Positions 3,625 to 21,694 of a DNA stretch of 63,037 nucleotides are shown here, piece by piece. Each line of letters opens with the position of its first letter. Position 1 is the first letter of the stretch. The position numbers and the translations under genes are program-made. The DNA comes from Ureibacillus massiliensis 4400831 = CIP 108448 = CCUG 49529 (GTDB lineage: Bacteria; Bacillota; Bacilli; Bacillales_A; Planococcaceae), in NCBI RefSeq assembly GCF_000772965.1, contig NZ_JPVQ01000022.1:1-63037 (forward strand). Direction: 5' to 3'. A model generated the notes under the pieces. It ran no database searches and had not been told where the DNA came from. It was given only the letters and a program-made list of their open reading frames with translations.

Positions 3625-3627
3625 ACC

Positions 3628-7008: not shown

Positions 7009-7028
7009 TTAAAATTAATACAAATTAC

Positions 7029-7070
7029 AAGCACCAGACGTGGGTAGATGCGTCTGGTGCTTGTTTTTTT
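7029..7070 (+). terminator. Rho-independent terminator of the efflux operon
   Basis: AAGCACCAGACG (7029-7040) pairs perfectly with CGTCTGGTGCTT (7051-7062) and is followed by GTTTTTTT. Confidence 0.95.
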
Positions 7071-7692
7071 ATTTTGTGGTAAACGATTTATTCTTCTCTC
7101 TTTGATGTAATTCGTAAAGAAGTGTTTTCGTTAATAGGAACTCCTTCCTAATCGTAGTCCTATTTAATTAGGAATAACGGAGTAGAAGATGAGAGCAGTA
7201 GGTGATATCATTTGCTATTTTTTGAAAATATAATTAAATCACTTCCATTAGTAACTTCATAGATTAGTAAAGTCATATTTTTATCACTTCCAACAGATTC
7301 CGCTCAGATATCTAGAAGAATATTAATTAAGATTCAAACAGGTGGTAATTAGAAATTACTAAATTTCGCCAGTGCTTTATAAACTGAAACAATATAGACA
7401 AAAAAGTAAAAAAATAATATTATAAAGAAGTAATAGGTACTTTTTTCTTCTTGTAAAAATCTAGTTATAAGGACTTTATACCTAATGTAATTAATTATTT
7501 AATTATGGTTTATTAGCTATAATTTAGTAATTTGATTTATCTGAATAGTTGAATTTACGAAATAATATTAGAAATCTATCTATGTATGCTTTAGTACATA
7601 AATTGTTCGTAAATTCGTTATTGTATGATAATGATAAATTTATGTTTTGGGGTATGAGCGGATACTCGAAAATATCGAAAGGGGGATAAAAA
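7071..7692. other. AT-rich intergenic region before the pterin operon
   Basis: No gene is supported. A hairpin candidate lies at 7141-7182 (TTCCTAAT at 7145-7152 against ATTAGGAA at 7167-7174, with outer CTCC/GGAG). A lone GAGCGGATA word sits at about 7657-7665, just before the next gene's ribosome site. The promoter of the long operon should lie in this region, but I could not pick one convincingly. Confidence 0.5.
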
Positions 7693-8088
7693 ATGACTCG
7701 AAAAACTACATATGATGGAATGTCAGTAAAAACAAGACAAAATATACCTTACCACTTTTCAAAACATAAGATCAAAGGAGAAATTCTAAAAATAACTGAA
7801 GAAAAGAAAATGACATCTGAAGAACAAGTAGAATTCTTATATGCTGTTATTCAAGAACAAGCTATTGATTTAGAAAAGTTAAGAAAACGAGAATTAAAGC
7901 AAAATTATGAAATTGAAAAGTCAAAACTATTTAATAAATTAGTTCATTGTTATGAAAAGAAAGTCGATATTGCAGTGGATCGTGAATTAAAGAATCACTA
8001 TTTTGAATTGCGAGAGATCATAAAAGAAATGGTTAAAGTAGATCGACAATTTGAGAAGTTTGCAGTGATTTTGGATGATTTGAAATAA
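7693..8088 (+). CDS. Hypothetical charged, coiled-coil protein
   Basis: A 131-aa protein with a strong AAAGGGGG ribosome site and ATG start. It is rich in Lys, Glu and Gln; residues about 25-80 and 95-125 look helical and coiled-coil. There is no signal peptide or membrane segment. It lies 63 bp upstream of the GTP cyclohydrolase gene on the same strand with no terminator between, so it may be the first gene of the operon. I do not recognise the family. The charge and helix content would fit a small DNA- or protein-binding regulator, but nothing in the sequence proves that. Confidence 0.75.
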   Translation: MTRKTTYDGMSVKTRQNIPYHFSKHKIKGEILKITEEKKMTSEEQVEFLYAVIQEQAIDLEKLRKRELKQNYEIEKSKLFNKLVHCYEKKVDIAVDRELKNHYFELREIIKEMVKVDRQFEKFAVILDDLK

Positions 8089-8151
8089 GGTTGCCCCAAT
8101 GTCACGTAATATATCTACAGACAAAATAGCATTTACAGGAGAATGATAGAC

Positions 8152-8757
8152 ATGATTAACACTAAAGAATTAACAGAACCTTTCGCAGAAAAGAAATCGG
8201 TGGACAATCAAATAATTGAAGATGCAATGCGTACGATTTTAAATGAGTTAGGAGAAGATATCCATCGTGAAGGGTTATTAGATACGCCGAAACGTGTTGC
8301 GAAAATGTATCGAGAAGTATTTCAAGGAGTAGGTATTGATCCAGAAATCGCATTAACAACTACCTTTGCAGAAGACTATGAAGGCATTGTAACTGTAAAA
8401 GATATTACATTCTACACGTTCTGTGAGCATCACATAATACCGTTCTTTGGTAAAGCGCATATCGGATACATTCCAAATGGTCGTGTTGTCGGCTTATCTA
8501 AATTTGCAAGATTAGTAGAATTAACTTCACAGCGTCCACAAGTACAAGAGCGTATGACAACTCAAATTGCGAATGCAATTGAAAATGTACTACAGCCAAA
8601 AGGTGTTATCGTCACTCTTGAAGCAGAACATCTTTGTATGTGTGCAAGAGGCGTAAAAAAACCAGGAACAAAAACGGTTACGACAATTAAAAAAGGTTTA
8701 TTTGCATCTGATGTTTCTCTATGTGAAGAGTTTGAAAGATCAATTTCTAGAGATTAA
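8152..8757 (+). CDS. folE: GTP cyclohydrolase I
   Basis: It converts GTP to 7,8-dihydroneopterin triphosphate, the entry step of folate and biopterin synthesis. The 201-aa product carries the family core: DTPKRVAKMY, FCEHHIIPFFGKAHIGYIP, QVQERMTTQI and LCMCARGV. Cys91, His94 and Cys162 match the zinc ligands of the E. coli enzyme. I prefer the ATG at 8152 over the one at 8143 because AGGAG (8137-8141) is too close to the latter. Its neighbours are PTPS and SDR genes, not folate genes, which points to biopterin rather than folate. It is probably a second copy, with a housekeeping folE elsewhere; that is inference. Confidence 0.95.
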   Translation: MINTKELTEPFAEKKSVDNQIIEDAMRTILNELGEDIHREGLLDTPKRVAKMYREVFQGVGIDPEIALTTTFAEDYEGIVTVKDITFYTFCEHHIIPFFGKAHIGYIPNGRVVGLSKFARLVELTSQRPQVQERMTTQIANAIENVLQPKGVIVTLEAEHLCMCARGVKKPGTKTVTTIKKGLFASDVSLCEEFERSISRD

Positions 8758-8772
8758 TAGGAGGAATATCCA

Positions 8773-9597
8773 ATGCTTTATTTATCAAGAAGGGTAGATT
8801 TCTCTGCCACTCATACATACAACATCCCGAGTTGGAGTAAAGAACTGAATAGACAAGTATTTGGAAAATGTAATAACCCTAATGGTCATGGACATGACTA
8901 CAAGCTTGAGGTAATGGTGCGTGGAAAATTGAACATGGAATCAGGAATTGTGGTTAATACAACAGACATTAAACATATCGTAAATACTTTTTTAGCAGAA
9001 GAACTTGATGGGAAATTTTTAGATAGAGAACACCCGTATTTTATCCGAAACTTGCCTACAACAGAGAATTTAGTAAATTACATTTGGAATTCTTTAAAGG
9101 ATAAAATGGAGGGCTGTGAACTCTATCAACTGCGCCTACACGAAAACCATTATTTACATGCCGAAAGGAAGATTAATGAAATGACTTATTTAACGAGACA
9201 ATACCATTTCTCTGCTGCTCATAGATTACATAGCATCCACCTTTCTGATGAGGAAAACGTAAAGCTATTCGGAAAATGCAACAATCCAAACGGCCATGGT
9301 CACAATTATTATGTGGATGTTCAAGTAAAAGGCGAACCTTCTAAAGAAACGGGAATGATTATTAACTTAGCAGATTTAGATGAAATCGTTGAACGTGAAA
9401 TAATGGATAAATTTGATCACATGAATTTAAATCTGGATACAGAAGAATTTAAAGAATTAAATCCAACATCGGAAGTAGTGGCAATGGTGTTTTATAACTT
9501 ACTCAAACCACATATCCCAAATTTGCATAAAATCGGGCTATGGGAGACTGAAAAAAATTACTTTGAATATTTAGGTGAGGACGATTATGGCATTTAA
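8773..9597 (+). CDS. Tandem-fused 6-pyruvoyl-tetrahydropterin synthase
   Basis: PTPS turns dihydroneopterin triphosphate into 6-pyruvoyl-tetrahydropterin. The 274-aa protein is two full PTPS domains in one chain, about residues 1-133 and 137-274. Each has a zinc-binding set and the catalytic cysteine: H14, C33, H39, H41 and H150, C169, H175, H177. Both copies read CNNPNGHGH, that is Cys-x5-His-Gly-His. This spacing is typical of biopterin-type PTPS; queuosine QueD has Cys-x3-His-Gly-His. Family members are normally single-domain hexamers, so the double form is unusual. The start is ATG with AGGAGG upstream, 15 bp after folE. The next gene overlaps its stop by 11 bp, implying translational coupling. 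Confidence 0.92.
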   Translation: MLYLSRRVDFSATHTYNIPSWSKELNRQVFGKCNNPNGHGHDYKLEVMVRGKLNMESGIVVNTTDIKHIVNTFLAEELDGKFLDREHPYFIRNLPTTENLVNYIWNSLKDKMEGCELYQLRLHENHYLHAERKINEMTYLTRQYHFSAAHRLHSIHLSDEENVKLFGKCNNPNGHGHNYYVDVQVKGEPSKETGMIINLADLDEIVEREIMDKFDHMNLNLDTEEFKELNPTSEVVAMVFYNLLKPHIPNLHKIGLWETEKNYFEYLGEDDYGI

Positions 9598-10309
9598 TAC
9601 AGACATCCTTAAAGGAAAAAATATCGCAATAGCAGGTGCTTCGAAAGGAATTGGTAAAGAAACAGCCAAACTTCTTTCATCACTAGGTGCCAACTTACTA
9701 TTAGGGGCAAGAACTTTAGATGCTCTTATCGAGGTGTCCGCTAACCAATCAAATAAAGTGGTACATCAATTTTTAGATGTAACAAATGAAGACTCTGTAA
9801 GAAATTTTGTTGAACTTGGAATATCAGAATTCGGTGAAATCGATGCACTCGTTAATTGTTCTGGATATGGTACTTTCAATTCATTTTTAGAGCTTTCAAC
9901 AGAAGAATTCGATCGAATGATTTCTGTCAATTTAAGAGGAACATTTTTAACTTCAAAATATTTTGCGAAACATATGGTGAAAAACAAACGAGGACAAATT
10001 ATTAATATTAACTCAATTGCTGGGGAGACGGTGCTTGAGGGGAATGCAGGATATTCTTCTTCAAAATTTGGCCTACTAGGATTGTCCAAGGTGATGCAGT
10101 TAGAACTAAGAAAACAAGGAGTATATGTAACTTCTGTTCTTCCTGGTTCAACAAGTACTTCTTTTTGGGATCACATTGAAAATCACCCAGATAAATCAAA
10201 GATGATTCCACAGGATGTTGTTGCAAAACATATCGTTTCAATCTTATGCCAACCAGAAGGAGTGGTCGTTGAAGAAGTAACCATTACACCACCTTTAGGG
10301 ATACTTTAG
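9587..10309 (+). CDS. Short-chain dehydrogenase, candidate sepiapterin-reductase role
   Basis: A classical SDR of 240 aa: cofactor loop GASKGIGKE near the N-terminus, a conserved NCSG strand, active-site Ser in NINSIAG, and Tyr156-x3-Lys160 (YSSSK). The basic or polar residues after the glycine motif would fit NADPH. Placed directly after GTP cyclohydrolase I and PTPS, it is the natural candidate for reducing 6-pyruvoyl-tetrahydropterin to tetrahydrobiopterin, the job of sepiapterin reductase. SDR substrate cannot be read from sequence, so this role is inferred from context. ATG 9587 is chosen because AGGTGAGG sits 6 bases upstream; it overlaps the end of the PTPS gene. Confidence 0.85.
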   Translation: MAFNTDILKGKNIAIAGASKGIGKETAKLLSSLGANLLLGARTLDALIEVSANQSNKVVHQFLDVTNEDSVRNFVELGISEFGEIDALVNCSGYGTFNSFLELSTEEFDRMISVNLRGTFLTSKYFAKHMVKNKRGQIININSIAGETVLEGNAGYSSSKFGLLGLSKVMQLELRKQGVYVTSVLPGSTSTSFWDHIENHPDKSKMIPQDVVAKHIVSILCQPEGVVVEEVTITPPLGIL

Positions 10310-10327
10310 TTTAGGGAGTGGATAACA

Positions 10328-11251
10328 ATGAATCCGCTACTCAGTCGATTTTTTGGAGGTAACGAAAAACAAGAAGTTCAAGAAATCCCTATAATTCCTA
10401 AAACGATTCATTCTTTAGAAGAGCATCAAAGAATTTCAGTTGTTGGATGGATTGCGAATAAATTAGGACAGCTCATTGGAGTAGAACATTGCGATGACGG
10501 ACAATTAATGGTGGATGTTTTAAGTAAAGACTTTACCGAATTAGATCAGGAGAATCAAGAAGAGTATCTTTTTTTTCTCGCTAATTCCCTCGTTACTTGG
10601 ATTGAAAAGGATGAGGACGTTTATTTCAACATTAAAATGATGCAATTAGATTCCAACTATCACAAACATTTATTAGAAGTGTATGAGTTAGTGAAATCTT
10701 ATGACAACATCTACTTTAACAAAAAGAATCCGCTTATACAGGACATTAGCGAAGATGATAAGGAATGGGAAATATATCGAGATGTCCTTCATGCTGCAAG
10801 TAGTAGGAAATTTTTAATGGTAAAAGATGAGGAGCTTGAGCAATACAGGAACGATGAGCTTCTACTAGATGAACCTGTTGAAACAAAGGAAGACATTCCT
10901 TTAGTAAGAAATAAAGCGAAAACTAAGCTACAGGAAATAGAGGTACCTTCGAGTAAAATTGCTAGCTACGTGTTATTAATATCTGAAGCGATTACCAATA
11001 TGATCAAACATGCTAACGGTGGTCGTCTGAAAATTACAAAGAACGAAAAATCTATTCATTTTTTAATTGAGGACCGGGGTTCGGGTTTTCCTTTAAAAAT
11101 ATTACCTTATACAGTACTGATGTCTGGATATTCAACGAAGAAATCCTTAGGACAAGGGTTCACATTAATGCTAAAACTATCATCTCGAGTTCTTTTGAAA
11201 ACTTCGTCAACTGGTTCAACAATCGTGCTTATTTTAGAAGAAGAAGAGTAA
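10328..11251 (+). CDS. GHKL ATPase, RsbW/RsbT-like switch kinase with novel N-terminus
   Basis: The C-terminal third (about residues 210-305) is a HATPase_c fold of the anti-sigma/switch-kinase type: N-box EAITNMIKHANG at 220-231, DRGSGFP at 249-255, and GYSTKKSLGQGFTLM as the ATP-lid/G2 region. There is no histidine-kinase dimerisation domain. The first 200 residues are acidic and helical and match nothing I know. Its likely job is to phosphorylate one or both STAS proteins encoded downstream (17488, 20752), opposed by the phosphatase at 17807. It lies inside the pterin genes, 18 bp after the SDR, which links the two halves of the cluster. No cognate sigma factor is present. Confidence 0.82.
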   Translation: MNPLLSRFFGGNEKQEVQEIPIIPKTIHSLEEHQRISVVGWIANKLGQLIGVEHCDDGQLMVDVLSKDFTELDQENQEEYLFFLANSLVTWIEKDEDVYFNIKMMQLDSNYHKHLLEVYELVKSYDNIYFNKKNPLIQDISEDDKEWEIYRDVLHAASSRKFLMVKDEELEQYRNDELLLDEPVETKEDIPLVRNKAKTKLQEIEVPSSKIASYVLLISEAITNMIKHANGGRLKITKNEKSIHFLIEDRGSGFPLKILPYTVLMSGYSTKKSLGQGFTLMLKLSSRVLLKTSSTGSTIVLILEEEE

Positions 11252-11288
11252 ATAAAGAGAGTTTTATAAATGATTTTTAAATAGAAAA

Positions 11289-11298
11289 CACTATAGTG
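11289..11298. promoter_or_regulatory. CACTATAGTG palindrome in the operon's largest internal gap
   Basis: A perfect 10-bp palindrome in the 109-bp gap between the ATPase and first carrier-protein genes, followed by a further AGTG half. It could mark an internal promoter or operator that lets the carrier-protein genes be regulated separately. Only position and symmetry support this. Confidence 0.3.
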
Positions 11299-11360
11299 AT
11301 AGTGGAAATGATATTTTGATTTTACATGCGAAGGATATTGTTAAAAGGAGGAATAGTTCA

Positions 11361-11612
11361 ATGAATTTTAATGATTTTTGTACGACGATGTTCGATCTAC
11401 TGGAAAGAGAACCCATCATAGTTTCGGAAAATACAGTGCTTCGAGATGACCTAGATGTAGATTCACTTCAAATGGTTAATCTCGCAACAAGCTTGGCAGA
11501 TCATTATCTTATCCCTTTTAGTTTATTTATTGAGAAAGCAGACAAGATTGGCACAGTTGGTGGACTATTCGAGATTGTTAAAGAAGGTGCAACATATGAA
11601 GTTATACAATAA
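11361..11612 (+). CDS. Acyl carrier protein, copy 1
   Basis: An 83-aa carrier protein with the phosphopantetheine site DVDSLQMVN (Ser35), an acidic helix around it and the usual four-helix length. It should carry an acyl or aminoacyl group as a thioester loaded by the adenylate ligase whose ATG overlaps its 3' end. A perfect AAAGGAGG precedes ATG 11361, so an in-frame upstream start at 11316 is not favoured. It is clearly paralogous to the carrier protein at 14183: the first 20 residues and the whole DVDSLQ helix are nearly the same. It differs from housekeeping AcpP, which normally has DSLDTVE-like contexts. Confidence 0.9.
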   Translation: MNFNDFCTTMFDLLEREPIIVSENTVLRDDLDVDSLQMVNLATSLADHYLIPFSLFIEKADKIGTVGGLFEIVKEGATYEVIQ

Positions 11613-13050
11613 AGTGCTAGCTGATATAGAAGAAAATACAATTTCTTTAACTACTTTTGATAGTCGATTCACAGCTGGTGAATTGCGAGATGCTGTTTCA
11701 AAGTATGAGGAATTACTACGTCCCTATAACGTAGTGGGAAAAAGAATTGCAATTTTAGTACCAGCAATACAGCAATTTCTACCTCTTTTCTTTGCAATAA
11801 ATAAACTGAAAGGAACAGTCGCTCCTCTAAGCTGGCAATTTAGAAAAGAAGATTTGAATAATGTGATCGATTTTCTTAACCCCCATATTATTTTTACGGT
11901 AAACGAACATAATGGTTTTTCATTCTCAGAAGTGATTCAAGGTTGGGCGAGTGAGAAAGGAAATGAGACGTTAATCTTTACATCGGAAAATTGTAGCGAT
12001 TGGCATCTCACAAATTTCCAAGGAGCAACTAAAAAGCTAGAAACAATCCCAGGTCGGTTTATCACATTTACTTCTGGTAGTACAGGAACACCTAAAGGAT
12101 TAATTTATAAAGAAGAAATCATGGACTATTCCTACGAACAGTTATCGAAAGTAATGAAACTGGATAATAAAGATAATGTTTTTGTCTATGCATCCACAAG
12201 CACCGTTTTGGGGATTATTTCCATGAGTTCAGTATTAATGGCGAATGCAAATTTACTTGTGGCAAATGAGTTTGATTTAGTAAAAATTATCCAAAGGATG
12301 GAAGACACTCAGTGTAATAAGTTTATTACGACGCCTTCCATATTTAAAGCATTATACAATTTCGCAAGCAAGCTTAACCCGAAAGTATTAACCAATTTAG
12401 AAGTCGTTTGTCTTGTAGGCGAGAAGATACCAGACAATTACGTAAATCCATTCCCTCTATTAGAACAATGTATATTTGTTTCTCACTATGGTAGCTCAGA
12501 GACAGGCGCTGTTGGGAATGTATATCTTAAGAAGGATTCTAAAGATTTGGAGTATACATTGATTAATGAAGCCGAGGCAAAGTCAGTTGAAGGTGAGCTA
12601 TATGTGAAAACAGGAGCGATGTTTACTGAATACTTCGGAAACCCTACATTAACAAATGAAGTTTTCGAAGACGGTTGGTATAAGATGGGAGACTTAGTTG
12701 AATTTTTAGATGATCAAGTCTTTAAAATCATCGGTAGGAAAAAGGACATTATTAAAAAAAGTGGTCAACAGGTCGTTTCTGCTGAAGTAGAACAGATTTT
12801 ACACCGAATGGAAGAAGTTCAAAGTGTTGCTGTAATCGGCGCACCACACGAGGTCTTTGGAGAACAAATCGTTGCATTTGTCGTTTCTGAAAATTTAACT
12901 GCTGCAGATATTCGTACATATTGCTTAGGGAAAATCTCATCCTATAAAGTTCCTGACAAAATCATATTTTTAGAGGAACTGCCCTTAAATCAAGGGAAAG
13001 TAGATAAGTTAAAGCTAAGAACACATTTTGCAGAACAGCAATTAACATAA
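11596..13050 (+). CDS. Acyl-/aryl-adenylate ligase loading carrier protein, copy 1
   Basis: A class I adenylate-forming enzyme of 484 aa. It has the P-loop TFTSGSTGTPKG at 157-168, a YGSSETG motif, GWYKMGDLVEF, the hinge region GRKKDIIKKSGQQV and the C-terminal catalytic lysine in NQGKVDK (Lys468). It should activate a carboxylic acid with ATP and transfer it to the adjacent carrier protein; the substrate is not predictable. ATG 11596 overlaps the carrier-protein gene by 17 bp and has AAGAAGGTG upstream. It is collinear with the ligase at 14419: P-loop and catalytic Lys have the same residue numbers. No condensation or reductase domain is attached. Confidence 0.88.
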   Translation: MKLYNKVLADIEENTISLTTFDSRFTAGELRDAVSKYEELLRPYNVVGKRIAILVPAIQQFLPLFFAINKLKGTVAPLSWQFRKEDLNNVIDFLNPHIIFTVNEHNGFSFSEVIQGWASEKGNETLIFTSENCSDWHLTNFQGATKKLETIPGRFITFTSGSTGTPKGLIYKEEIMDYSYEQLSKVMKLDNKDNVFVYASTSTVLGIISMSSVLMANANLLVANEFDLVKIIQRMEDTQCNKFITTPSIFKALYNFASKLNPKVLTNLEVVCLVGEKIPDNYVNPFPLLEQCIFVSHYGSSETGAVGNVYLKKDSKDLEYTLINEAEAKSVEGELYVKTGAMFTEYFGNPTLTNEVFEDGWYKMGDLVEFLDDQVFKIIGRKKDIIKKSGQQVVSAEVEQILHRMEEVQSVAVIGAPHEVFGEQIVAFVVSENLTAADIRTYCLGKISSYKVPDKIIFLEELPLNQGKVDKLKLRTHFAEQQLT

Positions 13051-13113
13051 TCGTGTAATAGATGATTTCTTTTAAGAAGTGTTTGAGAAGAAGAGAAAGA
13101 TGATGGTGAAAAA

Positions 13114-14193
13114 ATGGAAAAGTCTCTTGGGAAAATGTCGACGGATGTCATTATTGAGAAAACAATTTTTACAAGTGTTATGGATAACGGATTTTGGGAT
13201 CGTTGGATTGTCCATGGAATCGATGAAGCATTCATTAAAGAAAATAAAACTAAAATGATCAATGTAGATGGCTGGACAAAAACGTTATCAGATAAAGCAG
13301 AAGAGTATTCAAAACTAGCGGAAAAATTTGAAGAAGCAGGGGACAAGCTTCAAGCAGAACAAAATTATCGTAAAGCGGGTATTTATTATAATCTCGTTCA
13401 ATGGGTGTTTCCTGAGCCAGCTGGTAAGAGAGCTGAATGGTATGAACGCTGCTTAGAAGCGTTTCGATTTGCAGATCTTGCGTCGGAGGATGAAATCATC
13501 CATCATACATTGACGATTAATGAAAAAAATTATGGTGGACGTATTCGAATTCCGAATAGAGAAGTTGAAGGGGTTGTCATTCTTGTGATGCCAACCGATT
13601 CAACAAAAGAAGAATTCTATTTGTATGAACAGGATTTTGCTGAAGAGGGATTTGTAGTTATTAGTTTTGATGGAACAGGTCAAGGGGAAACATTACTAAT
13701 CCATGGACATAAGGCAGATATTGAGACATGGGAGCAGTTCATGAATGGGGTAGTCCATTTTGCATCGGCGCAGTTCCCAAATCTATCGATCAATTTATTT
13801 GGTACAAGCTCTGGTGGTGCATGGGCAATGGAAGGTAGCCGAAATTCGCTCGTATCGAAAACGGCAGTTGTTAGTCCACCACCAAAGTTTAAAAATAACG
13901 TTCGACTTCCTGATTACTTTAGAGAGCGTATGAACAATATGTTAGTTGATTTTGATAAAGGCTCATTACCATTATTTCAACATGCAGAGGAAATTGACGA
14001 CATCGTGGTATTTCACGGTGGAAAGGATTTATTAGTTATTGAAGATGAATTGAAGGAGCTATTTAATCAATTCTCCCCAGAAAAACGATTCATTACTTAT
14101 GAAGAAGAGGCGCATTGCTGTAACTATAAATTAGGGGAAATTCGTCACAGAACAGCTGAATGGTTTAAGGGGAGAAACATCCATGAAATTTAA
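13114..14193 (+). CDS. Alpha/beta hydrolase, FrsA/DHPON-hydrolase-like
   Basis: A 359-aa protein with a helical N-terminal lid (about 1-125) containing a WVFPEP/EWYERCLEAF segment, then an alpha/beta-hydrolase core. The nucleophile elbow is GTSSGGAW (Ser232), the acid is probably Asp in HGGKDLLV, and the His is His334 in EEEAHCCNY. That AHCC ending is typical of the 2,6-dihydroxypseudooxynicotine hydrolase/FrsA-like group, which includes C-C hydrolases and esterases. Sitting between two ligase/carrier-protein pairs, it may release or transfer the carrier-bound group (thioesterase or acyltransferase). The reaction is unknown. The ribosome site is weak; Met8 (13135) is an alternative start. Confidence 0.82.
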   Translation: MEKSLGKMSTDVIIEKTIFTSVMDNGFWDRWIVHGIDEAFIKENKTKMINVDGWTKTLSDKAEEYSKLAEKFEEAGDKLQAEQNYRKAGIYYNLVQWVFPEPAGKRAEWYERCLEAFRFADLASEDEIIHHTLTINEKNYGGRIRIPNREVEGVVILVMPTDSTKEEFYLYEQDFAEEGFVVISFDGTGQGETLLIHGHKADIETWEQFMNGVVHFASAQFPNLSINLFGTSSGGAWAMEGSRNSLVSKTAVVSPPPKFKNNVRLPDYFRERMNNMLVDFDKGSLPLFQHAEEIDDIVVFHGGKDLLVIEDELKELFNQFSPEKRFITYEEEAHCCNYKLGEIRHRTAEWFKGRNIHEI

Positions 14194-14422
14194 CGATTTT
14201 TGTGAGACTTTATTCAATCTATTGGAAAGAGAACCTGTACCAGTTTCAAATTCTATGAATCTTAGAGACGAATTAGATGTGGATTCACTACAAATGGTCA
14301 ATCTTGCAACAAGTATAGCAGATCATTATGAAATTCCTTTTCGTTTATTTATAGAAAATGCCGATAAAATTGGTACGGTTGGTGGTTTATACGAAATTGT
14401 GTTGGAGGGGGCATCTATGTGA
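14183..14422 (+). CDS. Acyl carrier protein, copy 2
   Basis: A 79-aa carrier protein with the same DVDSLQMVN phosphopantetheine site (Ser35) as copy 1. Both also share FNDFC near the start and DKIGTVGGL near the end. The ATG overlaps the hydrolase stop by 11 bp, and its own stop overlaps the GTG of the next ligase (sequence ATGTGA), so three genes are translationally coupled. The pair 14183/14419 is a duplicate of the pair 11361/11596. Confidence 0.9.
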   Translation: MKFNDFCETLFNLLEREPVPVSNSMNLRDELDVDSLQMVNLATSIADHYEIPFRLFIENADKIGTVGGLYEIVLEGASM

Positions 14423-15864
14423 GTCTATACGAGAATATCTTAGCAGGCTTAGATAGAAAAAAAGAATCATTAGTTACTTTAGAAAAATGTTTTACAGCAG
14501 GTGAATTGCAAGATGCTGTATTTAAATATGAGATGATGTTAAGTCCTTTTAACTTAGAGGGAAAAAGAGTCGCCCTTTTAGTTCCAACTATTTCTGAATT
14601 TCTACCATTATTTTTTGCGGTGAATAAACTGAAAGGTACCGTTTCTCCTTTGAGTTTGCAACTAAGAAAAGGGGACTTGTTAAATGTTTTGGATTTCCTA
14701 GATCCACATGTTGTATTTTCTGTAAATGATCATTCAGGATTTGCTTTCTCAGAAGTTGTAACAAATTGGGCAAGTGGTATGAATCGAGAAGCATTAATCT
14801 TCACATCAGATGATTGCACAAATTGGGAAGTGGAGATCTTTCATGGAAGCTGTAAACCATTACAGTCTCAATTAGGAGGATTTATTACTTTTACTTCAGG
14901 TAGTACTGGTACTCCAAAGGGTGTCGTTTTTAAAGATGAGGTCCTACAATATGGCTATGACAGACTGTTGGATGCCATGAAATTAGAACCTTCTGATACT
15001 GTTTTTGTTTACACAGCACCGAGTACGCTCTATGGTGTTTCATCGATGAATGCAATGTTAAAGGTAGGCGCAACATTGGTTACAGCTGATGACTTTGATT
15101 TAGTTAAGATGATTCACACAATGAAAAAAGCAAAGTGCAATAAGATTACTACAACTCCATCAATCTTTAAATCTTTATATAACTTTGCTAGTCGATTAGA
15201 TGAAGAGGTTGTAAAAAATTTAGAATTAGTATGTGTGATTGGTGAGAAAGTACCTGCTAATTTTAAAAGTTATTTTCCATTAATGGAAAGTTGTACGTTT
15301 TTATCACATTACGGTAGCTCGGAATCTGGTTCTCTAGCAAATGCTTATATGAATAAGGATGCCGAAGAATTACTATTTACAATGCCAAAGGAAGTAGATT
15401 GTAAAACAGTAGACGGGGAATTGTTTGTGAAGTCAGGTGGATTATTTACAGAATACTATCAAAATCCAATTTTAACAGCAGAAGTGTTAGAAGACGGTTG
15501 GTTTAAAATGGGTGACTTAGTTGAATTTATTGATCAACACACATTCAAGATTGTAGGTAGGAAGAAGGATGTCATTAAAAAAGGTGGCGTTCAAGTAATA
15601 ACAAGTGAAGTGGAACAAATTCTCAGTCAAATAGACGGTGTAAAAGGTGTTGCTGTAGTTGGTTCTCCGCATGAAGTTTTTGGCGAACAAATTGTTGCAT
15701 TTATCATTGCTGATGGCATCACATCAAAAGATATCCGCTCTTATTGCGCGGGAAATTTTTCTTCCTATAAAATACCGGATAAGATGATTTTTATTGATGA
15801 ATTCCCTTTAATAAATGGAAAAGTAGATAAGATGAAACTGAAATCCCAATTAAGTAGAGGATAA
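14419..15864 (+). CDS. Acyl-/aryl-adenylate ligase loading carrier protein, copy 2
   Basis: A paralogue of the ligase at 11596, 481 aa, beginning at GTG 14419 with GGAGGGGG 7 bases upstream. It keeps TFTSGSTGTPKG (157-168), YGSSESG, GWFKMGDLVEF, GRKKDVIKKGGVQV and the C-terminal NGKVDK lysine (Lys468). Small changes in the substrate half (for example YTAPSTLYGVSSMNAML against YASTSTVLGIISMSSVL) suggest the two ligases may take different acids. Its intact motifs argue against decay. The duplication predicts that the product contains two activated units, or that the same carrier chemistry runs twice. Confidence 0.88.
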   Translation: MSLYENILAGLDRKKESLVTLEKCFTAGELQDAVFKYEMMLSPFNLEGKRVALLVPTISEFLPLFFAVNKLKGTVSPLSLQLRKGDLLNVLDFLDPHVVFSVNDHSGFAFSEVVTNWASGMNREALIFTSDDCTNWEVEIFHGSCKPLQSQLGGFITFTSGSTGTPKGVVFKDEVLQYGYDRLLDAMKLEPSDTVFVYTAPSTLYGVSSMNAMLKVGATLVTADDFDLVKMIHTMKKAKCNKITTTPSIFKSLYNFASRLDEEVVKNLELVCVIGEKVPANFKSYFPLMESCTFLSHYGSSESGSLANAYMNKDAEELLFTMPKEVDCKTVDGELFVKSGGLFTEYYQNPILTAEVLEDGWFKMGDLVEFIDQHTFKIVGRKKDVIKKGGVQVITSEVEQILSQIDGVKGVAVVGSPHEVFGEQIVAFIIADGITSKDIRSYCAGNFSSYKIPDKMIFIDEFPLINGKVDKMKLKSQLSRG

Positions 15865-15871
15865 CAATAAT

Positions 15872-17476
15872 ATGAAAAAAATAAAAAAAACAAGAAAAAG
15901 TACTTTAAATAGGCAGTTTGTCAGCAGAATGCTTATCGTGCTTTTAATTATATTAAGTTCTTCTGGTTTTATTCAGTATTTATATTTAAGTAAAAAGGTA
16001 AATTCTGATGTAACTGTTGAAGCATATAAAGTAGCTCAAAGTATTGAGCAAGGTTTGATAGAAACACATGAGGCATCAAAAGCAATTGAACTTCAACTAG
16101 ACTTAAAGCTTAAACTAATCGCCCAGCATATTAGTGATCGATTAGGAGATAGACCTATAACTGAGATAACGAATGAAGAGTTAGTAGCTCTAAGCAAAGA
16201 ATTTAATATTGCGGGAATTTCCCTATTCGAAGAACAGGCAGAAGGAGATATTGTTGGTGTCAAATCAACTGCACGAAGTGATATAGGATTTAGTTTTAAG
16301 AAGTTTCTTGGTGAAGAATCCCATGGGTATCAAACCGTATATAAGCTACTAAAGGGTGAGGAAATTGACGTTACTTATGAGACATATGTAGATGAAACGA
16401 CGGTTGTTTTACCTATTGCACCATCGGGATCACACAACGATACCCCAACATTTTTTAAATATGGATATTATGTTGCTCCAGATAAAAATTACATTATCAA
16501 TCCATTCTTTGAGGCAAATGAGGTATATCATTTTACACAAGATGTTGGACCAAGTGCATGGATTAAGACCGTATTAGAATCAAATGATTATGTAGAAGAA
16601 GTAGCGGTTTTAACACCGGAAGTTTACGCTGATCCATCATTATTAGATATTACAACTGAACTTTGGAAAAAAATTGAGTATGGTGCATTCGATTCTGAGA
16701 CTGAAAAAGATAGAGCAACAGTATCTAGTTTTCTTGAAAAGCCTGAAAGAGTTTCTTATATCGAAAAGCAAGGTGAGAAGACTTATTACAAAATGTTTAT
16801 TCCGACAGATGATGGAAAAGTCATTTATGTAGGATTAGATTATGATCATATGAGCGCACCATTAAAAAATATGTCATTAATACTTCTAGGATTTAGTTTT
16901 ATTTCATTATTAGCGTTATTTATTTTATCAACAAGATTCTTTGGGAAAATCTATAAAAACATCCAGGTCATTATTTCTCAAATTAAAACACTTGAGTCAG
17001 GAGACTTTACTTCTCAAAGTGAGATCAAGGATAACGGTGAATTAGGAGACTTATCTGCTAGTGCCAATCGAATGACGGTTACACTAAAGGATGTTTTAAA
17101 GGATACAACGAAGCAAGCTTCAAAGGTGCAAACGTTGTCTTCTCAGTTAAATAATGAAGCAAATGAAACTGTTGAAAAGGTTTATGAAATTTCAATTGAC
17201 CTAACATCTAAAGCTCGAGATGATGCATTTGAAATTATGGATTTCTTAGATATGGTAGAAAAAACCTTACAATCAGTGTCAAAAACAGAAGATGTCGAGT
17301 CTCTATTAAATCGAATAGAGAAAGTTCGAGCTCTTACAAATGATCGTTCACAATCAGCGACGGAGATTACTATTACTCTTTCAGATTTAATCAAATCATT
17401 ACAGGAACAATCAATGGAGCTGTCTGAAATCTCAAATGTACTCTTCAAAAATATGTATAAGTTTAAACTTAAATAG
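15872..17476 (+). CDS. Transmembrane HAMP sensor with extracellular sensing domain
   Basis: A 534-aa membrane receptor: TM1 at about residues 20-39, an extracytoplasmic region of about 295 residues (Cache-like by size and placement), TM2 at about 334-354, a HAMP linker to about 410, then a helical, Ser/Thr/Glu-rich cytoplasmic tail. The tail resembles a shortened methyl-accepting coiled coil, but I see no histidine kinase, GGDEF or classical MCP hairpin tip. It begins 8 bp after the second ligase and runs directly into the STAS and phosphatase genes, so it is the likely signal input for the partner switch. Its ligand is unknown; a secreted product of this operon is one possibility. Confidence 0.82.
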   Translation: MKKIKKTRKSTLNRQFVSRMLIVLLIILSSSGFIQYLYLSKKVNSDVTVEAYKVAQSIEQGLIETHEASKAIELQLDLKLKLIAQHISDRLGDRPITEITNEELVALSKEFNIAGISLFEEQAEGDIVGVKSTARSDIGFSFKKFLGEESHGYQTVYKLLKGEEIDVTYETYVDETTVVLPIAPSGSHNDTPTFFKYGYYVAPDKNYIINPFFEANEVYHFTQDVGPSAWIKTVLESNDYVEEVAVLTPEVYADPSLLDITTELWKKIEYGAFDSETEKDRATVSSFLEKPERVSYIEKQGEKTYYKMFIPTDDGKVIYVGLDYDHMSAPLKNMSLILLGFSFISLLALFILSTRFFGKIYKNIQVIISQIKTLESGDFTSQSEIKDNGELGDLSASANRMTVTLKDVLKDTTKQASKVQTLSSQLNNEANETVEKVYEISIDLTSKARDDAFEIMDFLDMVEKTLQSVSKTEDVESLLNRIEKVRALTNDRSQSATEITITLSDLIKSLQEQSMELSEISNVLFKNMYKFKLK

Positions 17477-17487
17477 GAGTGTCCAGC

Positions 17488-17814
17488 ATGCTTTTAACAG
17501 TAGAAAGTTTTACAGAAGAGTTTAAGCAAGTTTTTCAATTAAAAGGGATATTGGATTTCTCAACTGTTGATCATTTTGATTTCTACCAAAATATAAGTGA
17601 ATCTGTTAGGGAAATAGAAGTTGATTTTACTCATCTAGAATTTATCGATTCAACTGGAATTGGTGCGATATTATCAATTCTTCATCGTGCAGCTAGTTTA
17701 AATGCAAAGGTTAACTTCAGTGGGATGTCTAAGGATACCATTGATCTGTTTGAAACGATTGGCGTGTTCGATATAAAAAAATCTCTTCTAGATGGGAATG
17801 ATCATCATGTTTAA
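17488..17814 (+). CDS. STAS-domain anti-sigma-factor-antagonist-like protein, 1
   Basis: A 108-aa single STAS domain with the phosphorylation loop EFIDSTGIGAILS (Ser55 after Asp54). Such proteins are phosphorylated by GHKL switch kinases and dephosphorylated by PP2C phosphatases, and they switch binding partner accordingly. Both enzyme types are encoded in this operon (10328 and 17807). ATG 17488 is preferred to the in-frame GTG at 17479 because TAGGAG lies 8 bases upstream of it. The downstream phosphatase start overlaps its 3' end. Confidence 0.88.
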   Translation: MLLTVESFTEEFKQVFQLKGILDFSTVDHFDFYQNISESVREIEVDFTHLEFIDSTGIGAILSILHRAASLNAKVNFSGMSKDTIDLFETIGVFDIKKSLLDGNDHHV

Positions 17815-18634
17815 AAGAGGATTAGTTCAAGATCATCAATTGCTTGATCCGCAGATTAAAACACTAGAACGAGAAATAAATTTGGCGAAAAATATCCAAA
17901 CGAAATTATTAAATGGTGAGAGGCCAAAACTAGAGAATAGTGAAGTTTTAGGTATCTCAATACCTGCTAGGTTAATAGGGGGGGACTATTTTGATTTTTA
18001 CCCCCTTCCTAATGGGAAGATTCGAATTGTAATTGGTGATGTAATGGGGAAAGGAATTCCTGCTGCCATGCTGATGATACTGACACGTGGCGCATTTCGG
18101 ACAGCAGCAGAGTCAACAAAGGGTCCAGGTGAAACTTTAACGGCAATGAATAATGCACTTTATCGAGATTTGAGAATACTTAATTCATTTGTAACTGTAT
18201 TTTGTGCTGATTGGGATTCGACAACGTGGACTTTTTCTTATGCTAGTGCCGGTCATTCATTACCAGAGGTTATAAGAAAAGATACGACTCAATTTGATAT
18301 ACCTTCTGTTCGAGGAATCATGCTTGGTGGATTACCTAATCAAGTATATAAAGAAGAAAAAGTAACTTTAGCTGAAGGTGATCTAGTTTTCTTATATACA
18401 GATGGAATTGTGGAAGCAGTTAATAAAGCGAATGAAATGTATAAAGTGGATCGTTTGAAAGATGTATTGAGATCAGTCGTGTCTAAGAATATAAAGACGA
18501 TTGAAGAAACGGTGATTGAGGATATAAAAGTTTTTACTGAAGGATTACCACAACGGGATGATATAACGATGGTTCTTTTAAAAATTGGGAAGGAAAGCTC
18601 AGAGATATCCAGTTATAATGCCCCGCTAGTGTAA
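17807..18634 (+). CDS. SpoIIE/RsbU-type PP2C serine phosphatase
   Basis: A soluble 275-aa PPM phosphatase. Metal-binding motifs are present: GGDYFDF (Asp60), IGDVMGKG, FLYTDGIVEA and RDDITMVLL. A short N-terminal helix, residues about 15-45, resembles the linker/switch helix of RsbU-class enzymes, and there is no sensory domain of its own. It would dephosphorylate a STAS protein of this operon. The membrane sensor two genes upstream may control it. ATG 17807 has GATGGGA upstream; in-frame ATGs at 17792 and 17798 are possible. The gene overlaps the STAS gene. Confidence 0.9.
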   Translation: MFKRGLVQDHQLLDPQIKTLEREINLAKNIQTKLLNGERPKLENSEVLGISIPARLIGGDYFDFYPLPNGKIRIVIGDVMGKGIPAAMLMILTRGAFRTAAESTKGPGETLTAMNNALYRDLRILNSFVTVFCADWDSTTWTFSYASAGHSLPEVIRKDTTQFDIPSVRGIMLGGLPNQVYKEEKVTLAEGDLVFLYTDGIVEAVNKANEMYKVDRLKDVLRSVVSKNIKTIEETVIEDIKVFTEGLPQRDDITMVLLKIGKESSEISSYNAPLV

Positions 18635-18650
18635 TGAGAGGAGGATGGAT

Positions 18651-20750
18651 ATGGGTGAATTAATTACATCGAAGGGTAAAAATGCAAAAGAGGCTGTTGA
18701 TTTGGCTTTATCGTTATTAGGTAAGGATATTTCTGAGGTGGAAATAGAGATATTAAAACATGAGGAAAAAAGTTTTTTAGGGTTAAAATCTAAGCCAGCT
18801 GTCGTTCGGGTCAAAGTAAAAGATGAAGTCATGTTAATAGAAGATGAACTGAACGAGTCCAGTCACCTTGTAACGGATAATGATATTGATTCCGCGTCCC
18901 AATCGATTGAAGAATTCCTATCATCAATAGAGAACGAATCGCAGAATACGGATGTAAATTTCAATCTTGATCCCTTTGAAATTGAAAATCTTCGAGGGAA
19001 AGCTTGGATCATTGATGGAAAGATTTATTGCAAAGATGCGGGAAATAAATATCCATTAATCGAACCATCTAAAGATGTACGTATATTTAAAAACGGTATG
19101 TTAATTCAATCAACAGAAATTATTACTGAAACAGATGTTTTCAAAATTGAAGCTCCTTCTGAAGAAATATTACCGTCTTGGGAGCTTTCGATAAGTAAAG
19201 ATAAATTAGAAGTTCGTTTACAGATTAAAGTCGGTAAAAAAATAAGCTATACACCAATCGATTTAGAGCCTAGTGATTATCTAAAAATCGAAACAGTTAA
19301 AGCCATTACTCCTCTTACAATTCAACTAAGTGAAGTTTTAAATAAATTGAAAGAATTAAGAGTAGTGCATGGCATCGATTACACGGAGATTAATAAAGCC
19401 TGTGCCACAGAAGAAGATGGGGATTATATCATTGCAAAGGGTACACCAGCAACTCAAGGAAAGAATGGTACCTTCCAGCTTTTTAATGATATTGAAGTAA
19501 AGAAGCAATTAAAAGAGCGTGTAGATGGGTCTGTTGATTTTAGAGAAACGCGAGAATTTCCTTCAGTACATTTTGGTCAAATTATTGGTGAAGCCATGCC
19601 GCCAATCGAAGGGAAGTCCGGCATGGATGTTACGGGAACAGTAATCGAACCAGAAGCTGTATATCCAATTATATTAAAAGCAGGTACTGGTGTCATTCTT
19701 GTAGATAATTCTAAAGTCGTTTCAACAGAAACTGGTTATCCCGAAGTGAAAATAGTTGGACAGTTAGCAACTGTTTCCGTAGTTCCTAAACTAGTCATTC
19801 AGCATGATGTCACAATAGAAACTGGCAATGTTCATTATCTAGGTGCGGTAGAAGTTAAAGCATCCATCCAAGATAATATGACAGTGGAAGCAAAGGGAAA
19901 TATTAAAGTTGGTAGTAACGTTATTCGAGCGAAAGTCTTATCCGGTAAATCTATTATTGTAGAAAATAATATTATCGCCAGCAGCTTAACTTCTGGGAAT
20001 GGAATTTTACAAAAGCTAGAATTATCGAAAGAACTATTACGCTTTTCTAAAGGTTTGAAAAATTTGATTGTCGCAATGAAACAATTGTCACAAGCGTCGG
20101 CATTTAAAGTCCAATCTCTAAATGTCACAGGTCTTGGTCCACTTGTGAAAATTCTTTTTAATAGTAAATTTAAAGATATGCCACCATTGATAAATTCAAT
20201 CGTAAATAGAACAAGAGAGTATTCCTCAATCTTGGAAAGTGATTGGATTGATTTTGCAGAATTAATCAATAAAGAATTTATTGCTTTTCATCAATCTTCG
20301 TTAAAAAATGAAGAAGATTTAGAACGTATTGTAAGTCAAGCGGAATCCTTGTACTTACCAGTGATGGATGAAAATGAGGCGGAATCTACTTTTATAAGAG
20401 CGAATTTTGTTCAAAGTAGTGATTTATATTCAAGTGGAGATATACTGATTACGGGCCAGGGCGTCTATAGCTCGAAATTGTATGCACGAAAAAATATAAA
20501 AATAAACGGTTTTGTTCGTGGTGGGGACATTTATGCTGAAAATAGTGTCATCATTAACGAAGTTGGCTTCCGAGCAAGTTCTTATGTAAAAATCAATGTA
20601 TCGAAAGATGGTTATATCAAGATTAAAAGTGCTTCACCCAACACAATTATCCAAGTTGGCGGTCAGTCTCAAATTTTATATAATCCAGCAAAGAACATTG
20701 ATGCAAGATTAGATCAGTATGGCAACTTAGTTATATCAAAGGAGGAATAA
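18651..20750 (+). CDS. Jag_N-FapA (DUF342) beta-helix protein
   Basis: A 699-aa protein. The first 55 residues look like a Jag_N domain (KGKNAKEAVDLALSLLG and FLGLKSKPAVVRV), the module at the N-terminus of KhpB/Jag. The rest is a FapA/DUF342 architecture: repeated Gly/Val/Ile strands such as GDILITGQGVYS and GNIKVGSNVIRAKV that predict a right-handed beta-helix, broken by a helical hairpin near residues 465-585. FapA proteins are often listed as flagellar assembly protein A, but no flagellar gene is nearby. Placed between the phosphatase and the last STAS gene, it may be the switch's scaffold or output. ATG 18651 follows GAGGAGG. Confidence 0.85.
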   Translation: MGELITSKGKNAKEAVDLALSLLGKDISEVEIEILKHEEKSFLGLKSKPAVVRVKVKDEVMLIEDELNESSHLVTDNDIDSASQSIEEFLSSIENESQNTDVNFNLDPFEIENLRGKAWIIDGKIYCKDAGNKYPLIEPSKDVRIFKNGMLIQSTEIITETDVFKIEAPSEEILPSWELSISKDKLEVRLQIKVGKKISYTPIDLEPSDYLKIETVKAITPLTIQLSEVLNKLKELRVVHGIDYTEINKACATEEDGDYIIAKGTPATQGKNGTFQLFNDIEVKKQLKERVDGSVDFRETREFPSVHFGQIIGEAMPPIEGKSGMDVTGTVIEPEAVYPIILKAGTGVILVDNSKVVSTETGYPEVKIVGQLATVSVVPKLVIQHDVTIETGNVHYLGAVEVKASIQDNMTVEAKGNIKVGSNVIRAKVLSGKSIIVENNIIASSLTSGNGILQKLELSKELLRFSKGLKNLIVAMKQLSQASAFKVQSLNVTGLGPLVKILFNSKFKDMPPLINSIVNRTREYSSILESDWIDFAELINKEFIAFHQSSLKNEEDLERIVSQAESLYLPVMDENEAESTFIRANFVQSSDLYSSGDILITGQGVYSSKLYARKNIKINGFVRGGDIYAENSVIINEVGFRASSYVKINVSKDGYIKIKSASPNTIIQVGGQSQILYNPAKNIDARLDQYGNLVISKEE

Positions 20751-20751
20751 C

Positions 20752-21069
20752 ATGTTCCGGTTTAATGTACAAGATGAACATGAAAAGACCGTTATTCATT
20801 TCGATGGAGATTTAGACATTGAAGCAACAGAAGTCATTGAAGGCGAATTAATGAATGAAATAACTCATACTTCAGAATTAGTGGAGCTAAATTTTAAAAA
20901 TATCGACTTCGTAGATTCTTCTGGGATTGGGTTATTAATTACTTTAATATCTGTATTAAAAGATTCAGAAAAAAAGCCGACAATCACAAATATTAATGAA
21001 GATGTCAAAGTCGTTTTTGAATTACTCCAATTAGAAGAAATATTAGGCAAAGATGTAGTAAACGTTTAA
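20752..21069 (+). CDS. STAS-domain anti-sigma-factor-antagonist-like protein, 2
   Basis: A 105-aa STAS domain with the loop IDFVDSSGIGLLITL (Ser56/57 after Asp55), the canonical RsbV/SpoIIAA site. It is the last gene of the operon, 1 bp after the FapA stop, with AAAGGAGG. It is diverged from the STAS at 17488, so the two may answer to different partners, for example one to the ATPase and one to FapA. Being directly coupled to FapA suggests a physical complex. That is inference. Confidence 0.9.
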   Translation: MFRFNVQDEHEKTVIHFDGDLDIEATEVIEGELMNEITHTSELVELNFKNIDFVDSSGIGLLITLISVLKDSEKKPTITNINEDVKVVFELLQLEEILGKDVVNV

Positions 21070-21107
21070 CATTTAAACAATCATGTGCATATGGGGATAT
21101 ATTTTCG

Positions 21108-21138
21108 GAGAAGTTGAAATTTTGACTTCTCTTTTTTT
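21108..21138 (+). terminator. Rho-independent terminator of the 7693-21069 operon
   Basis: GAGAAGT (21108-21114) pairs with ACTTCTC (21125-21131), followed by seven T. It is the first convincing terminator after the one at 7029, supporting a single long transcription unit. Confidence 0.9.
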
Positions 21139-21291
21139 GCGTGGGTTTGGGATAGTTGGTGTGCCGTAGAAATCGAGGGATTGGACAAGAGTTGGATGTA
21201 GGCGGAAATTTGCGGTGCTGGTGGGTTTGCTTGCGAATAAAGTTTGGAGTGCTGGAGGTTTGCGGATGAATAAAGCTGGAGATTTGCGAGT

Positions 21292-21671: not shown

Positions 21672-21694
21672 CTAACACCAGATAGTTATCTTTC

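What the first reader, a model, noticed from the sequence alone, without database searches (positions are those of the whole stretch)
7693..21069. Candidate new system: biopterin synthesis + twin carrier-protein/ligase modules + partner-switching in one operon
Seen: 15 same-strand genes, mostly overlapping or a few bp apart, between terminators at 7029 and 21108. The order is unknown protein, GTP cyclohydrolase I, tandem PTPS, SDR, GHKL switch ATPase, ACP, ligase, alpha/beta hydrolase, ACP, ligase, HAMP sensor, STAS, SpoIIE phosphatase, Jag_N-FapA, STAS. Known: GTPCH-PTPS-sepiapterin reductase makes tetrahydrobiopterin; GHKL kinase, PP2C and STAS form phospho-switches. Inference: the operon makes a reduced pterin, possibly acylated through the carrier proteins, and the sensor/switch gates its production or reads it, with FapA as scaffold or output. 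I know of no described system with this combination.
Basis: partly seen in the sequence, partly recalled or inferred. Interest (0 to 1): 0.93.

Follow-up and report, generated by a model that had tools for sequence, protein, structure and literature searches.

The report
Bacterial pterin-making and signalling operon
This stretch holds one conserved set of genes that makes a vitamin-like molecule (a reduced pterin) next to a membrane sensor and a phosphate-based switch; it may be a pterin signalling system of Gram-positive bacteria, but no experiment has shown that the sensor reads the pterin.

Summary
In detail: 15 same-strand genes (7693-21069) with the stated domains lie between two terminator-like hairpins. 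Tandem PTPS genes of this type were found at 23 loci in 22 Bacilli genomes. At all 23 the same strand carries a membrane sensor with one ~290-residue extracellular domain that has no Pfam or NCBIfam family. At 17 loci a GHKL kinase gene goes with it (PP2C and STAS genes at 16, FapA at 15); at 6 the sensor is fused to GGDEF-EAL, 31-234 bp from the PTPS gene. PTPS-linked sensors fall in three places of the sensor tree. One Paenibacillus cluster carries HD-GYP-like, PilZ and GGDEF genes. I read this as a pterin-signalling module: dedicated tetrahydropterin synthesis and a receptor, tied to partner switching and, in relatives, to c-di-GMP. It works like PruA-PruR-DcpA of Proteobacteria but fails its membership tests. 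The ACP-ligase pair is accessory (ligase at 9 of 23 loci). Product, binding and direction of signalling are inferred. Main points against: the sensor family is far wider than the pterin cassette (65 against 9 of 398 genomes), and the window's own genus shows no c-di-GMP gene beside the operon.

The parts
7027..7064 (+). terminator-like hairpin after the upstream gene (RND-efflux-like by eye, no family search)
7395..7423 (+). promoter-like site upstream of gene 1 (10 of 12)
   Evidence: consensus match only, promoter-like sites overall are fewer than in shuffles
7693..8088 (+). g01, 131 aa, unknown; among all loci fetched, relatives only in two other genomes of the genus
8143..8757 (+). g02 GTP cyclohydrolase I; a second copy lies on contig C117 of the genome
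8773..9597 (+). g03 dual-domain PTPS-II; the N-domain has DG where the C-domain has DH
9575..10309 (+). g04 short-chain dehydrogenase/reductase (sepiapterin-reductase-like role inferred)
10328..11251 (+). g05 GHKL switch kinase, RsbW/SpoIIAB-like ATPase at the C-terminus
11361..11612 (+). g06 acyl carrier protein 1 (ATG start; longer TTG ORF from 11316)
11596..13050 (+). g07 AMP-forming acyl ligase 1 (longer TTG ORF from 11530)
13114..14193 (+). g08 alpha/beta hydrolase related to 2jbw, 8qd7 and AntI hydrolases
14183..14422 (+). g09 acyl carrier protein 2
14419..15864 (+). g10 AMP-forming acyl ligase 2
15872..17476 (+). g11 membrane sensor: two TM segments, extracellular domain (15980-16879) without Pfam or NCBIfam family, weak HAMP, cytoplasmic tail
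17479..17814 (+). g12 STAS protein 1 (DSTG)
17792..18634 (+). g13 SpoIIE-type PP2C phosphatase with metal-site motifs
18645..20750 (+). g14 Jag_N-FapA (DUF342) protein
20752..21069 (+). g15 STAS protein 2 (DSSG)
21107..21132 (+). terminator-like hairpin

Best explanation
A pterin-signalling operon. GTP cyclohydrolase I, a dual-domain 6-pyruvoyl-tetrahydropterin synthase and an SDR make a tetrahydrobiopterin-like reduced pterin (inferred from families; product not shown), modified perhaps by the alpha/beta hydrolase and, in some strains, an ACP-ligase pair. The pterin reaches the outside and is read, in its reduced state, by the extracellular domain of the membrane sensor g11 (inferred). Through its HAMP and tail the sensor sets the balance between the SpoIIE-type phosphatase g13 and the GHKL kinase g05 on the two STAS proteins, and a dephosphorylated STAS protein acts through FapA (inferred). 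In relatives the same sensor domain drives GGDEF-EAL directly, or the cluster holds c-di-GMP genes, so the likely purpose is to tie a surface or motility decision to pterin level or redox state. Shown here: the conserved gene set, intact motifs, and the constant pairing of PTPS and sensor. Not shown: product, binding, phosphorylation, target.
For: (1) At 23 of 23 Bacilli loci with the tandem PTPS (22 genomes; found by PTPS searches) the sensor lies on the same strand, gap 31 bp to 10.1 kb. In the 6 GGDEF-EAL-type loci the gap is 31-234 bp and no switch gene was found in the locus. (2) The 22 PTPS-linked sensors in the tree (L131's not included) need three label changes, which starred branches force, with 0 of 500 shuffles as low. 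The PTPS of L116 groups, weakly (87/49), with those of L120/L125, while its sensor lies in another starred branch: the sensor was apparently swapped for another member of the same family. (3) GCH occurs twice in 11 of 13 PTPS genomes, one copy in the cluster. (4) PTPS-II motif: C-domain 23 of 23, N-domain 20 of 23. (5) In the window both STAS proteins have DS[ST]G, the GHKL protein N-box and G1, the phosphatase its metal motifs. (6) c-di-GMP: HD-GYP-like, PilZ, GGDEF and EAL genes in the P. cremeus cluster; a c-di-GMP gene in 10 of 17 switch-type loci against 4 of 40 control stretches, Fisher p = 2.5e-4; in pterin-less FapA modules the GHKL kinase is fused to an HD domain. (7) None of 13 PTPS genomes has an aromatic amino acid hydroxylase, and bNOS is not enriched. 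(8) Precedent: pterin control of c-di-GMP in Agrobacterium (PMC13259868).
Against: The sensor domain is found in 65 of 398 Bacilli genomes (E up to 1e-10) but the full-length tandem PTPS in 9: most sensors of the family work without this pathway and may read something else. The three label changes could also be one gain and two losses. No c-di-GMP gene lies near the operon in the window or the four other PTPS loci of its genus (0 of 5); of the 10 positive loci three (L097, L122, L137) have it on the opposite strand only, and the 17 loci are related to each other. In L116, L120, L122 and L125 the patterns for GGD[YF] of the phosphatase and G1 of the kinase were not matched. In L120 PTPS and GHKL frames are broken. 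In L136, L139 and L141 the N-terminal PTPS domain lacks the motif. In L095 GCH, STAS, SpoIIE and FapA are missing. Transcription as one unit is untested.
Confidence: 0.5

Rival explanations
1. The sensor reads another outside cue and, through the switch, gates synthesis of a protective or coloured reduced pterin (antioxidant, UV screen, redox shuttle). The pterin is the output, not the signal.
For: 56 of 65 sensor genomes lack the full-length tandem PTPS. Switch and pterin genes lie in one gene run, so co-regulation is natural.
Against: Six loci pair a sensor-GGDEF-EAL protein with the PTPS (five of six with a recognised SDR) and no switch gene. Sensor and PTPS stay together through an apparent sensor swap.
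Confidence: 0.27
2. The operon makes an acylated or otherwise decorated pterin natural product, as the pepteridine cluster does; ACP-ligase pairs and hydrolase are tailoring enzymes and the switch is its private regulator.
For: Pepteridine A was lost without the GTP cyclohydrolase, PTPS or carrier-protein gene, and the locus affects quorum sensing (PMC5384830, abstract and 12 passages). The ACP serine motif is intact. The hydrolase is related to 2jbw, 8qd7 and AntI hydrolases (their carbon-carbon-cleaving chemistry is recalled).
Against: Ligase in 9, ACP in 7 of 23 loci (small ACP genes can be missed by this search); no condensation domain in the operon.
Confidence: 0.13
3. The operon supplies tetrahydrobiopterin as cofactor to an enzyme encoded elsewhere, such as nitric oxide synthase.
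For: bNOS in 10 of 13 PTPS genomes, the window's genome included.
Against: Within one sample, 6 of 9 PTPS genomes against 215 of 398 overall. G191, G207 and G492 have the cluster and no bNOS; no aromatic amino acid hydroxylase in 13 genomes. Does not explain sensor and switch.
Confidence: 0.06
4. Two unrelated operons happen to adjoin in this genome.
For: Separate promoters were not excluded.
Against: The two halves lie together in two gene orders across several families and at 16 of 17 switch-type loci.
Confidence: 0.01

Closest known systems
PruA-PruR-DcpA / DTB pterin signalling (Agrobacterium and other Proteobacteria; PMC13259868)
   Same: Reduced pterin made with an SDR-family enzyme; receptor ectodomain with exchangeable outputs (GGDEF-EAL or kinase); c-di-GMP.
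   Different: No PruR-like protein in the operon, a different ectodomain without conserved Trp, Gly instead of Arg in the SDR motif, its own GCH and PTPS-II, partner-switch output, Gram-positive hosts. The review's main text has no occurrence of Bacillus, Firmicutes, Gram-positive, STAS or PTPS.
Bacterial tetrahydrobiopterin pathway (GCH I, PTPS-II, sepiapterin reductase)
   Same: GCH I and PTPS-II met, SDR of fitting superfamily; dual-domain PTPS is said to serve BH4 synthesis in bacteria (title of Kong 2006 in the reference list of PMC5041015; paper not seen).
   Different: Embedded in a signalling operon; second GCH copy; no BH4-using hydroxylase in 13 genomes.
SpoIIA/SpoIIE, Rsb and SiaABCD partner switches
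   Same: GHKL kinase, PP2C, STAS with conserved DS[ST]G.
   Different: No sigma factor gene in the operon; PP2C not fused to the HAMP sensor as in SiaA (recalled); FapA and two STAS proteins; in pterin-less relatives the kinase is fused to an HD domain.
Pepteridine cluster of Photorhabdus (PMC5384830)
   Same: GTPCH, PTPS, reductase and a carrier protein in one locus; effect on quorum-sensing proteins.
   Different: No condensation domain or pyruvate-dehydrogenase-like subunits here; no receptor or switch reported there in what I saw.

Membership tests
BH4 biosynthesis pathway | GTP cyclohydrolase I | tested here: met
   TIGR00063 232.4 bits, cut-off 181.6
BH4 biosynthesis pathway | PTPS-II signature CxxxxxHGH | tested here: met
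   window: both domains (C33, C169), and no CxxxHGH; over 23 loci C-domain 23, N-domain 20. In several relatives the sequence CxxxHGHGH fits the QueD pattern CxxxHGH as well; signatures from PMC5041015
BH4 biosynthesis pathway | catalytic Asp-His pair of PTPS (recalled) | tested here: met
   D215 H216 invariant in the C-domain of 11 sequences; the N-domain has D79 G80 in 11 of 11, so it is probably inactive or altered; C-site DH at 23 of 23 loci
BH4 biosynthesis pathway | sepiapterin reductase | tested here: inconclusive
   SDR matches many SDRs; Chlorobium sepiapterin reductase 2bd0 at 100.4 bits is tenth
BH4 biosynthesis pathway | tetrahydrobiopterin made in the cell | not testable with these tools
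   needs LC-MS
PruA-PruR-DcpA | PruR, a SUOX-fold pterin-binding protein next to the receptor | tested here: not met
   no such family among the 15 genes; rest of the genome not searched
PruA-PruR-DcpA | TGX3RXG motif of the pteridine reductase | tested here: not met
   Gly in place of Arg in the SDR of 17 of 17 switch-type loci; window AGASKGIG
PruA-PruR-DcpA | DcpA ectodomain of ~190 aa with conserved WX7E | tested here: not met
   ectodomain ~290 aa; no Trp among invariant or nearly invariant columns of 23 sequences
PruA-PruR-DcpA | GGDEF-EAL (or histidine kinase) output on the receptor | tested here: not met
   window sensor has neither; GGDEF-EAL in 6 of 23 loci
Partner-switch module | GHKL kinase with N-box and G1 motifs | tested here: met
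   EAITNMIKH, EDRGSGF in the window
Partner-switch module | PP2C phosphatase of SpoIIE type | tested here: met
   SpoIIE 2.4e-48, metal-site motifs in the window
Partner-switch module | STAS protein with phosphorylatable DS[ST]G (site recalled) | tested here: met
   DSTG and DSSG
Partner-switch module (sigma-factor type) | cognate sigma factor gene in the operon | tested here: not met
   none among the 15 genes
SiaABCD | HAMP and PP2C in one protein; diguanylate cyclase in the operon (recalled) | tested here: not met
   separate genes, no GGDEF in the window operon
Pepteridine-type cluster | carrier protein plus condensation domain | tested here: not met
   ACPs present, no condensation domain

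The most novel reading that the evidence does not exclude
Gram-positive bacteria use a dedicated reduced pterin as a signal, made by an operon-encoded synthase, read by an undescribed extracellular sensor domain present in about one in six of 398 sampled Bacilli genomes, and wired either to c-di-GMP enzymes or to a FapA partner switch; it arose independently of the Proteobacterial PruR-DcpA pathway.
Probability: 0.4. Interest if true: 0.93.

Novelty: new variant of a known kind. Interest (0 to 1): 0.82.

Why it matters
A defined pterin receptor pathway is described, in the 2026 review I read, only for PruA-PruR-DcpA/DTB systems of Proteobacteria (it also mentions cyanobacterial pterins in phototaxis and CutA binding); which pterin serves, and how it is read, are open there. 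Here synthase and putative receptor lie in one gene run, so making and reading can be tested by single deletions. It could also give a function to a sensor domain found in 65 of 398 Bacilli genomes, to FapA/DUF342 proteins in Bacilli, and to biopterin-type PTPS in bacteria without an aromatic amino acid hydroxylase.

Tried and rejected
PTPS as a QueD/queuosine enzyme: rejected for the window by motif and scores. Pterin as cofactor for aromatic hydroxylases: none in 13 genomes; for bNOS: no enrichment. c-di-GMP genes beside the window operon: none, 0 of 5 loci of the genus. A sequence relative of the sensor domain among solved structures: one match at E 0.077, taken as chance. The sensor as a Cache domain: no such match for 23 members, one weak hit to DUF4898 in one. 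Prior description: no paper held all of GTP cyclohydrolase, 6-pyruvoyl, SpoIIE and STAS; the listings showed no account of this cluster, but most subscription journals are not in that library. Several EAL-only neighbours do not match simple patterns for catalytic motifs, so they may be receptors rather than enzymes; not pursued.

Counts to read with care. The broken sensor of L108 was left out of the sensor tree by a length filter, and L131's sensor was not in it because its locus ended before the sensor; L131 is counted through L282. G347 has a partial PTPS match with a stop and is not among the sensor genomes; it is not counted among the 23. The first script read only two of the fetched files and was replaced. 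Apart from the 17 switch-type PTPS loci, 13 of 29 other FapA loci held a c-di-GMP gene, HD-fused kinases included.
Full report
What is there. The window carries 15 genes on the + strand from 7693 to 21069 with gaps of -23 to +109 bp, bounded by terminator-like hairpins at 7027-7064 and 21107-21132. Gene 6 probably starts at the ATG at 11361 and gene 7 at 11596 (sequence); the two ACP-ligase pairs are duplicates, 77% and 57% identical.

Pterin half. The PTPS-II signature CxxxxxHGH, which marks the biopterin branch (PMC5041015, 12 passages seen), is in both domains of the window protein; over the 23 loci it is in the C-domain of all and the N-domain of 20, missing in L136, L139 and L141. The C-terminal half matches human PTPS at 157.8 bits and QueD entries at about 45. 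In 11 of 11 aligned sequences the N-domain has Asp-Gly where the C-domain has Asp-His. The SDR is generic by sequence and has Gly in place of the Arg of pteridine reductases (motif; tested). Its C-terminal [DE]E[IVM]..., P[PL]xG[IV]L ending recurs in the SDRs of the 21 PTPS loci printed (read by eye). GCH occurs twice in 11 of 13 genomes with the tandem PTPS, once in G149 and G315.

Switch half. GHKL N-box and G1, PP2C motifs, and DSTG/DSSG in the STAS proteins are intact in the window. The best NCBIfam matches of the GHKL protein are RsbA and SpoIIAB models, under their cut-offs. No sigma factor gene is in the operon.

Distribution. In the family sample the full-length tandem PTPS is in 5 of 151 genomes, all among the 17 genomes listed for the window's genus. 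In 398 class genomes it is full length in 9, with one partial, stop-containing match. A scan of named genomes kept 80 loci, 11 of them Bacillota: Paenibacillus (5), Pontibacillus, Bacillus xiamenensis, Anoxybacillus, Heyndrickxia, Domibacillus and Bacillus sp.. Together, without repeats, this gives 23 Bacilli loci in 22 genomes. The window's genus is not named by any search.

The constant partner. At all 23 the sensor lies on the same strand (L131 through L282). Other genes found in the 23 loci: SDR 22, GHKL 17, GCH 16, hydrolase 16, STAS 16, SpoIIE 16, FapA 15, ligase 9, ACP 7. L137 has no FapA in its locus; that genome's one FapA match lies on another contig with SpoIIE, STAS and GHKL genes. 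Two gene orders exist for the switch type. In six loci (L133, L134, L136, L139, L141, L231) the sensor is fused to GGDEF-EAL and lies 31-234 bp from the PTPS gene, and neither GCH nor switch genes were found in the locus.

The sensor domain. The ~290-residue extracellular domain between two TM segments has no NCBIfam family and, over 23 members, one weak Pfam hit in one member. It occurs in 65 of 398 genomes. In 20 further loci it is fused to EAL-bearing or histidine-kinase-like cytoplasmic parts (the kinases judged by eye). In a tree of 45 domains the 22 PTPS-linked ones need three changes of label, which starred branches force; 0 of 500 shuffles are as low, though near-copies help that. The PTPS tree puts L116 with L120/L125 at 87/49, whereas its sensor lies in another starred branch. 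So this PTPS is paired with separate branches of one sensor family, or was lost from branches between. This is the best evidence that enzyme and sensor work together; it does not show what the sensor binds, and most members live without the PTPS.

c-di-GMP. In Paenibacillus cremeus the order is HD-GYP-like, GCH, PTPS, SDR, FapA, STAS, PilZ, GGDEF, EAL-bearing, GHKL, hydrolase, sensor, STAS, SpoIIE, all on one strand. EAL-only genes lie just upstream of the cluster in L116, L120, L125 and L140, and two genes upstream, with a GGDEF gene between, in L138. Counting any c-di-GMP gene in the locus gives 10 of 17 switch-type PTPS loci against 4 of 40 control stretches, p = 2.5e-4. In three of the ten (L097, L122, L137) the gene is on the opposite strand only. 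Controls were 19.5-kb stretches at round positions in 12 genomes, 10 with the tandem PTPS and 2 with a FapA locus only; the 17 loci are related and of 17-28 kb, so the p value is a guide. In FapA modules without pterin genes the GHKL kinase is fused to an HD domain (three scanned by Pfam) with HD-GYP-like motifs (nine looked at). In G099 a second STAS-SpoIIE-FapA-STAS set follows an EAL-PAS gene, after two genes of 411 and 1090 residues where the window operon follows two of 411 and 1126. The window's own genus shows no c-di-GMP gene beside the PTPS operon (0 of 5).

How it most likely works is given in Best explanation. Closest in logic is PruA-PruR-DcpA/DTB of Proteobacteria (PMC13259868; parts 1-4 of 6 read, parts 5-6 not seen): reduced pterin, receptor ectodomain with exchangeable outputs, c-di-GMP. 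Tested membership features fail: no PruR-like gene in the operon, no TGX3RXG, no conserved WX7E. So it works like that system, if the reading is right, but is not a member.

Precedent for pterin plus carrier protein is the pepteridine cluster (PMC5384830, abstract and 12 passages).

Novelty. No paper in the held library joined the four terms, and the listings of nine further searches showed no account of the cluster; the 2026 review's main text does not contain Bacillus, Firmicutes, Gram-positive, STAS or PTPS. I rate it a new variant of a known kind (pterin signalling) because function is inferred; if binding is shown, the receptor domain and the switch output would be new.

Noticed in passing
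L095 (G149) 10582-17398: Same-genus cluster without GCH, STAS, SpoIIE and FapA but with PTPS, SDR, GHKL, hydrolase, ACP, ligase and sensor; the genome's best FapA match is a 28%-identical partial one.
   Followed up: partly
L093 (G099) 8817-14529: Second STAS-SpoIIE-FapA-STAS set, preceded by an EAL-PAS protein in place of pterin genes, after a gene pair of about the same lengths as upstream of the window operon.
   Followed up: partly
L222 4259-7755 and L238 3391-7044: In one genus an SDR gene lies next to a sensor-GGDEF-EAL gene, with no PTPS in the 12-kb stretch; resembles a PruA-DcpA-like pairing.
   Followed up: no
L099, L100, L104, L105, L107, L109, L111, L112, L113: GHKL switch kinases in one protein with an HD domain bearing HD-GYP-like motifs, in FapA modules without pterin genes.
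   Followed up: partly
L142 and L143: Poribacteria and Armatimonadota MAGs carry a PTPS(dual)-GCH-SDR trio without sensor or switch; many Chitinophagaceae loci (such as L145, L146, L148) carry two adjacent PTPS genes plus GCH.
   Followed up: no
L132 65-2332 and L138 1718-4780: Large membrane proteins upstream of the cluster that look MHYT-like by eye (recalled motif, no family search).
   Followed up: no
window 21073-21704: Repetitive stretch downstream of the operon with overlapping repeat-bearing ORFs on both strands, before an S-layer/SLH-like gene (by eye) at 22406-25981.
   Followed up: no
L120 (G492) 3092-5660: PTPS and GHKL frames of this cluster are interrupted, so the copy looks damaged or misread.
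   Followed up: no
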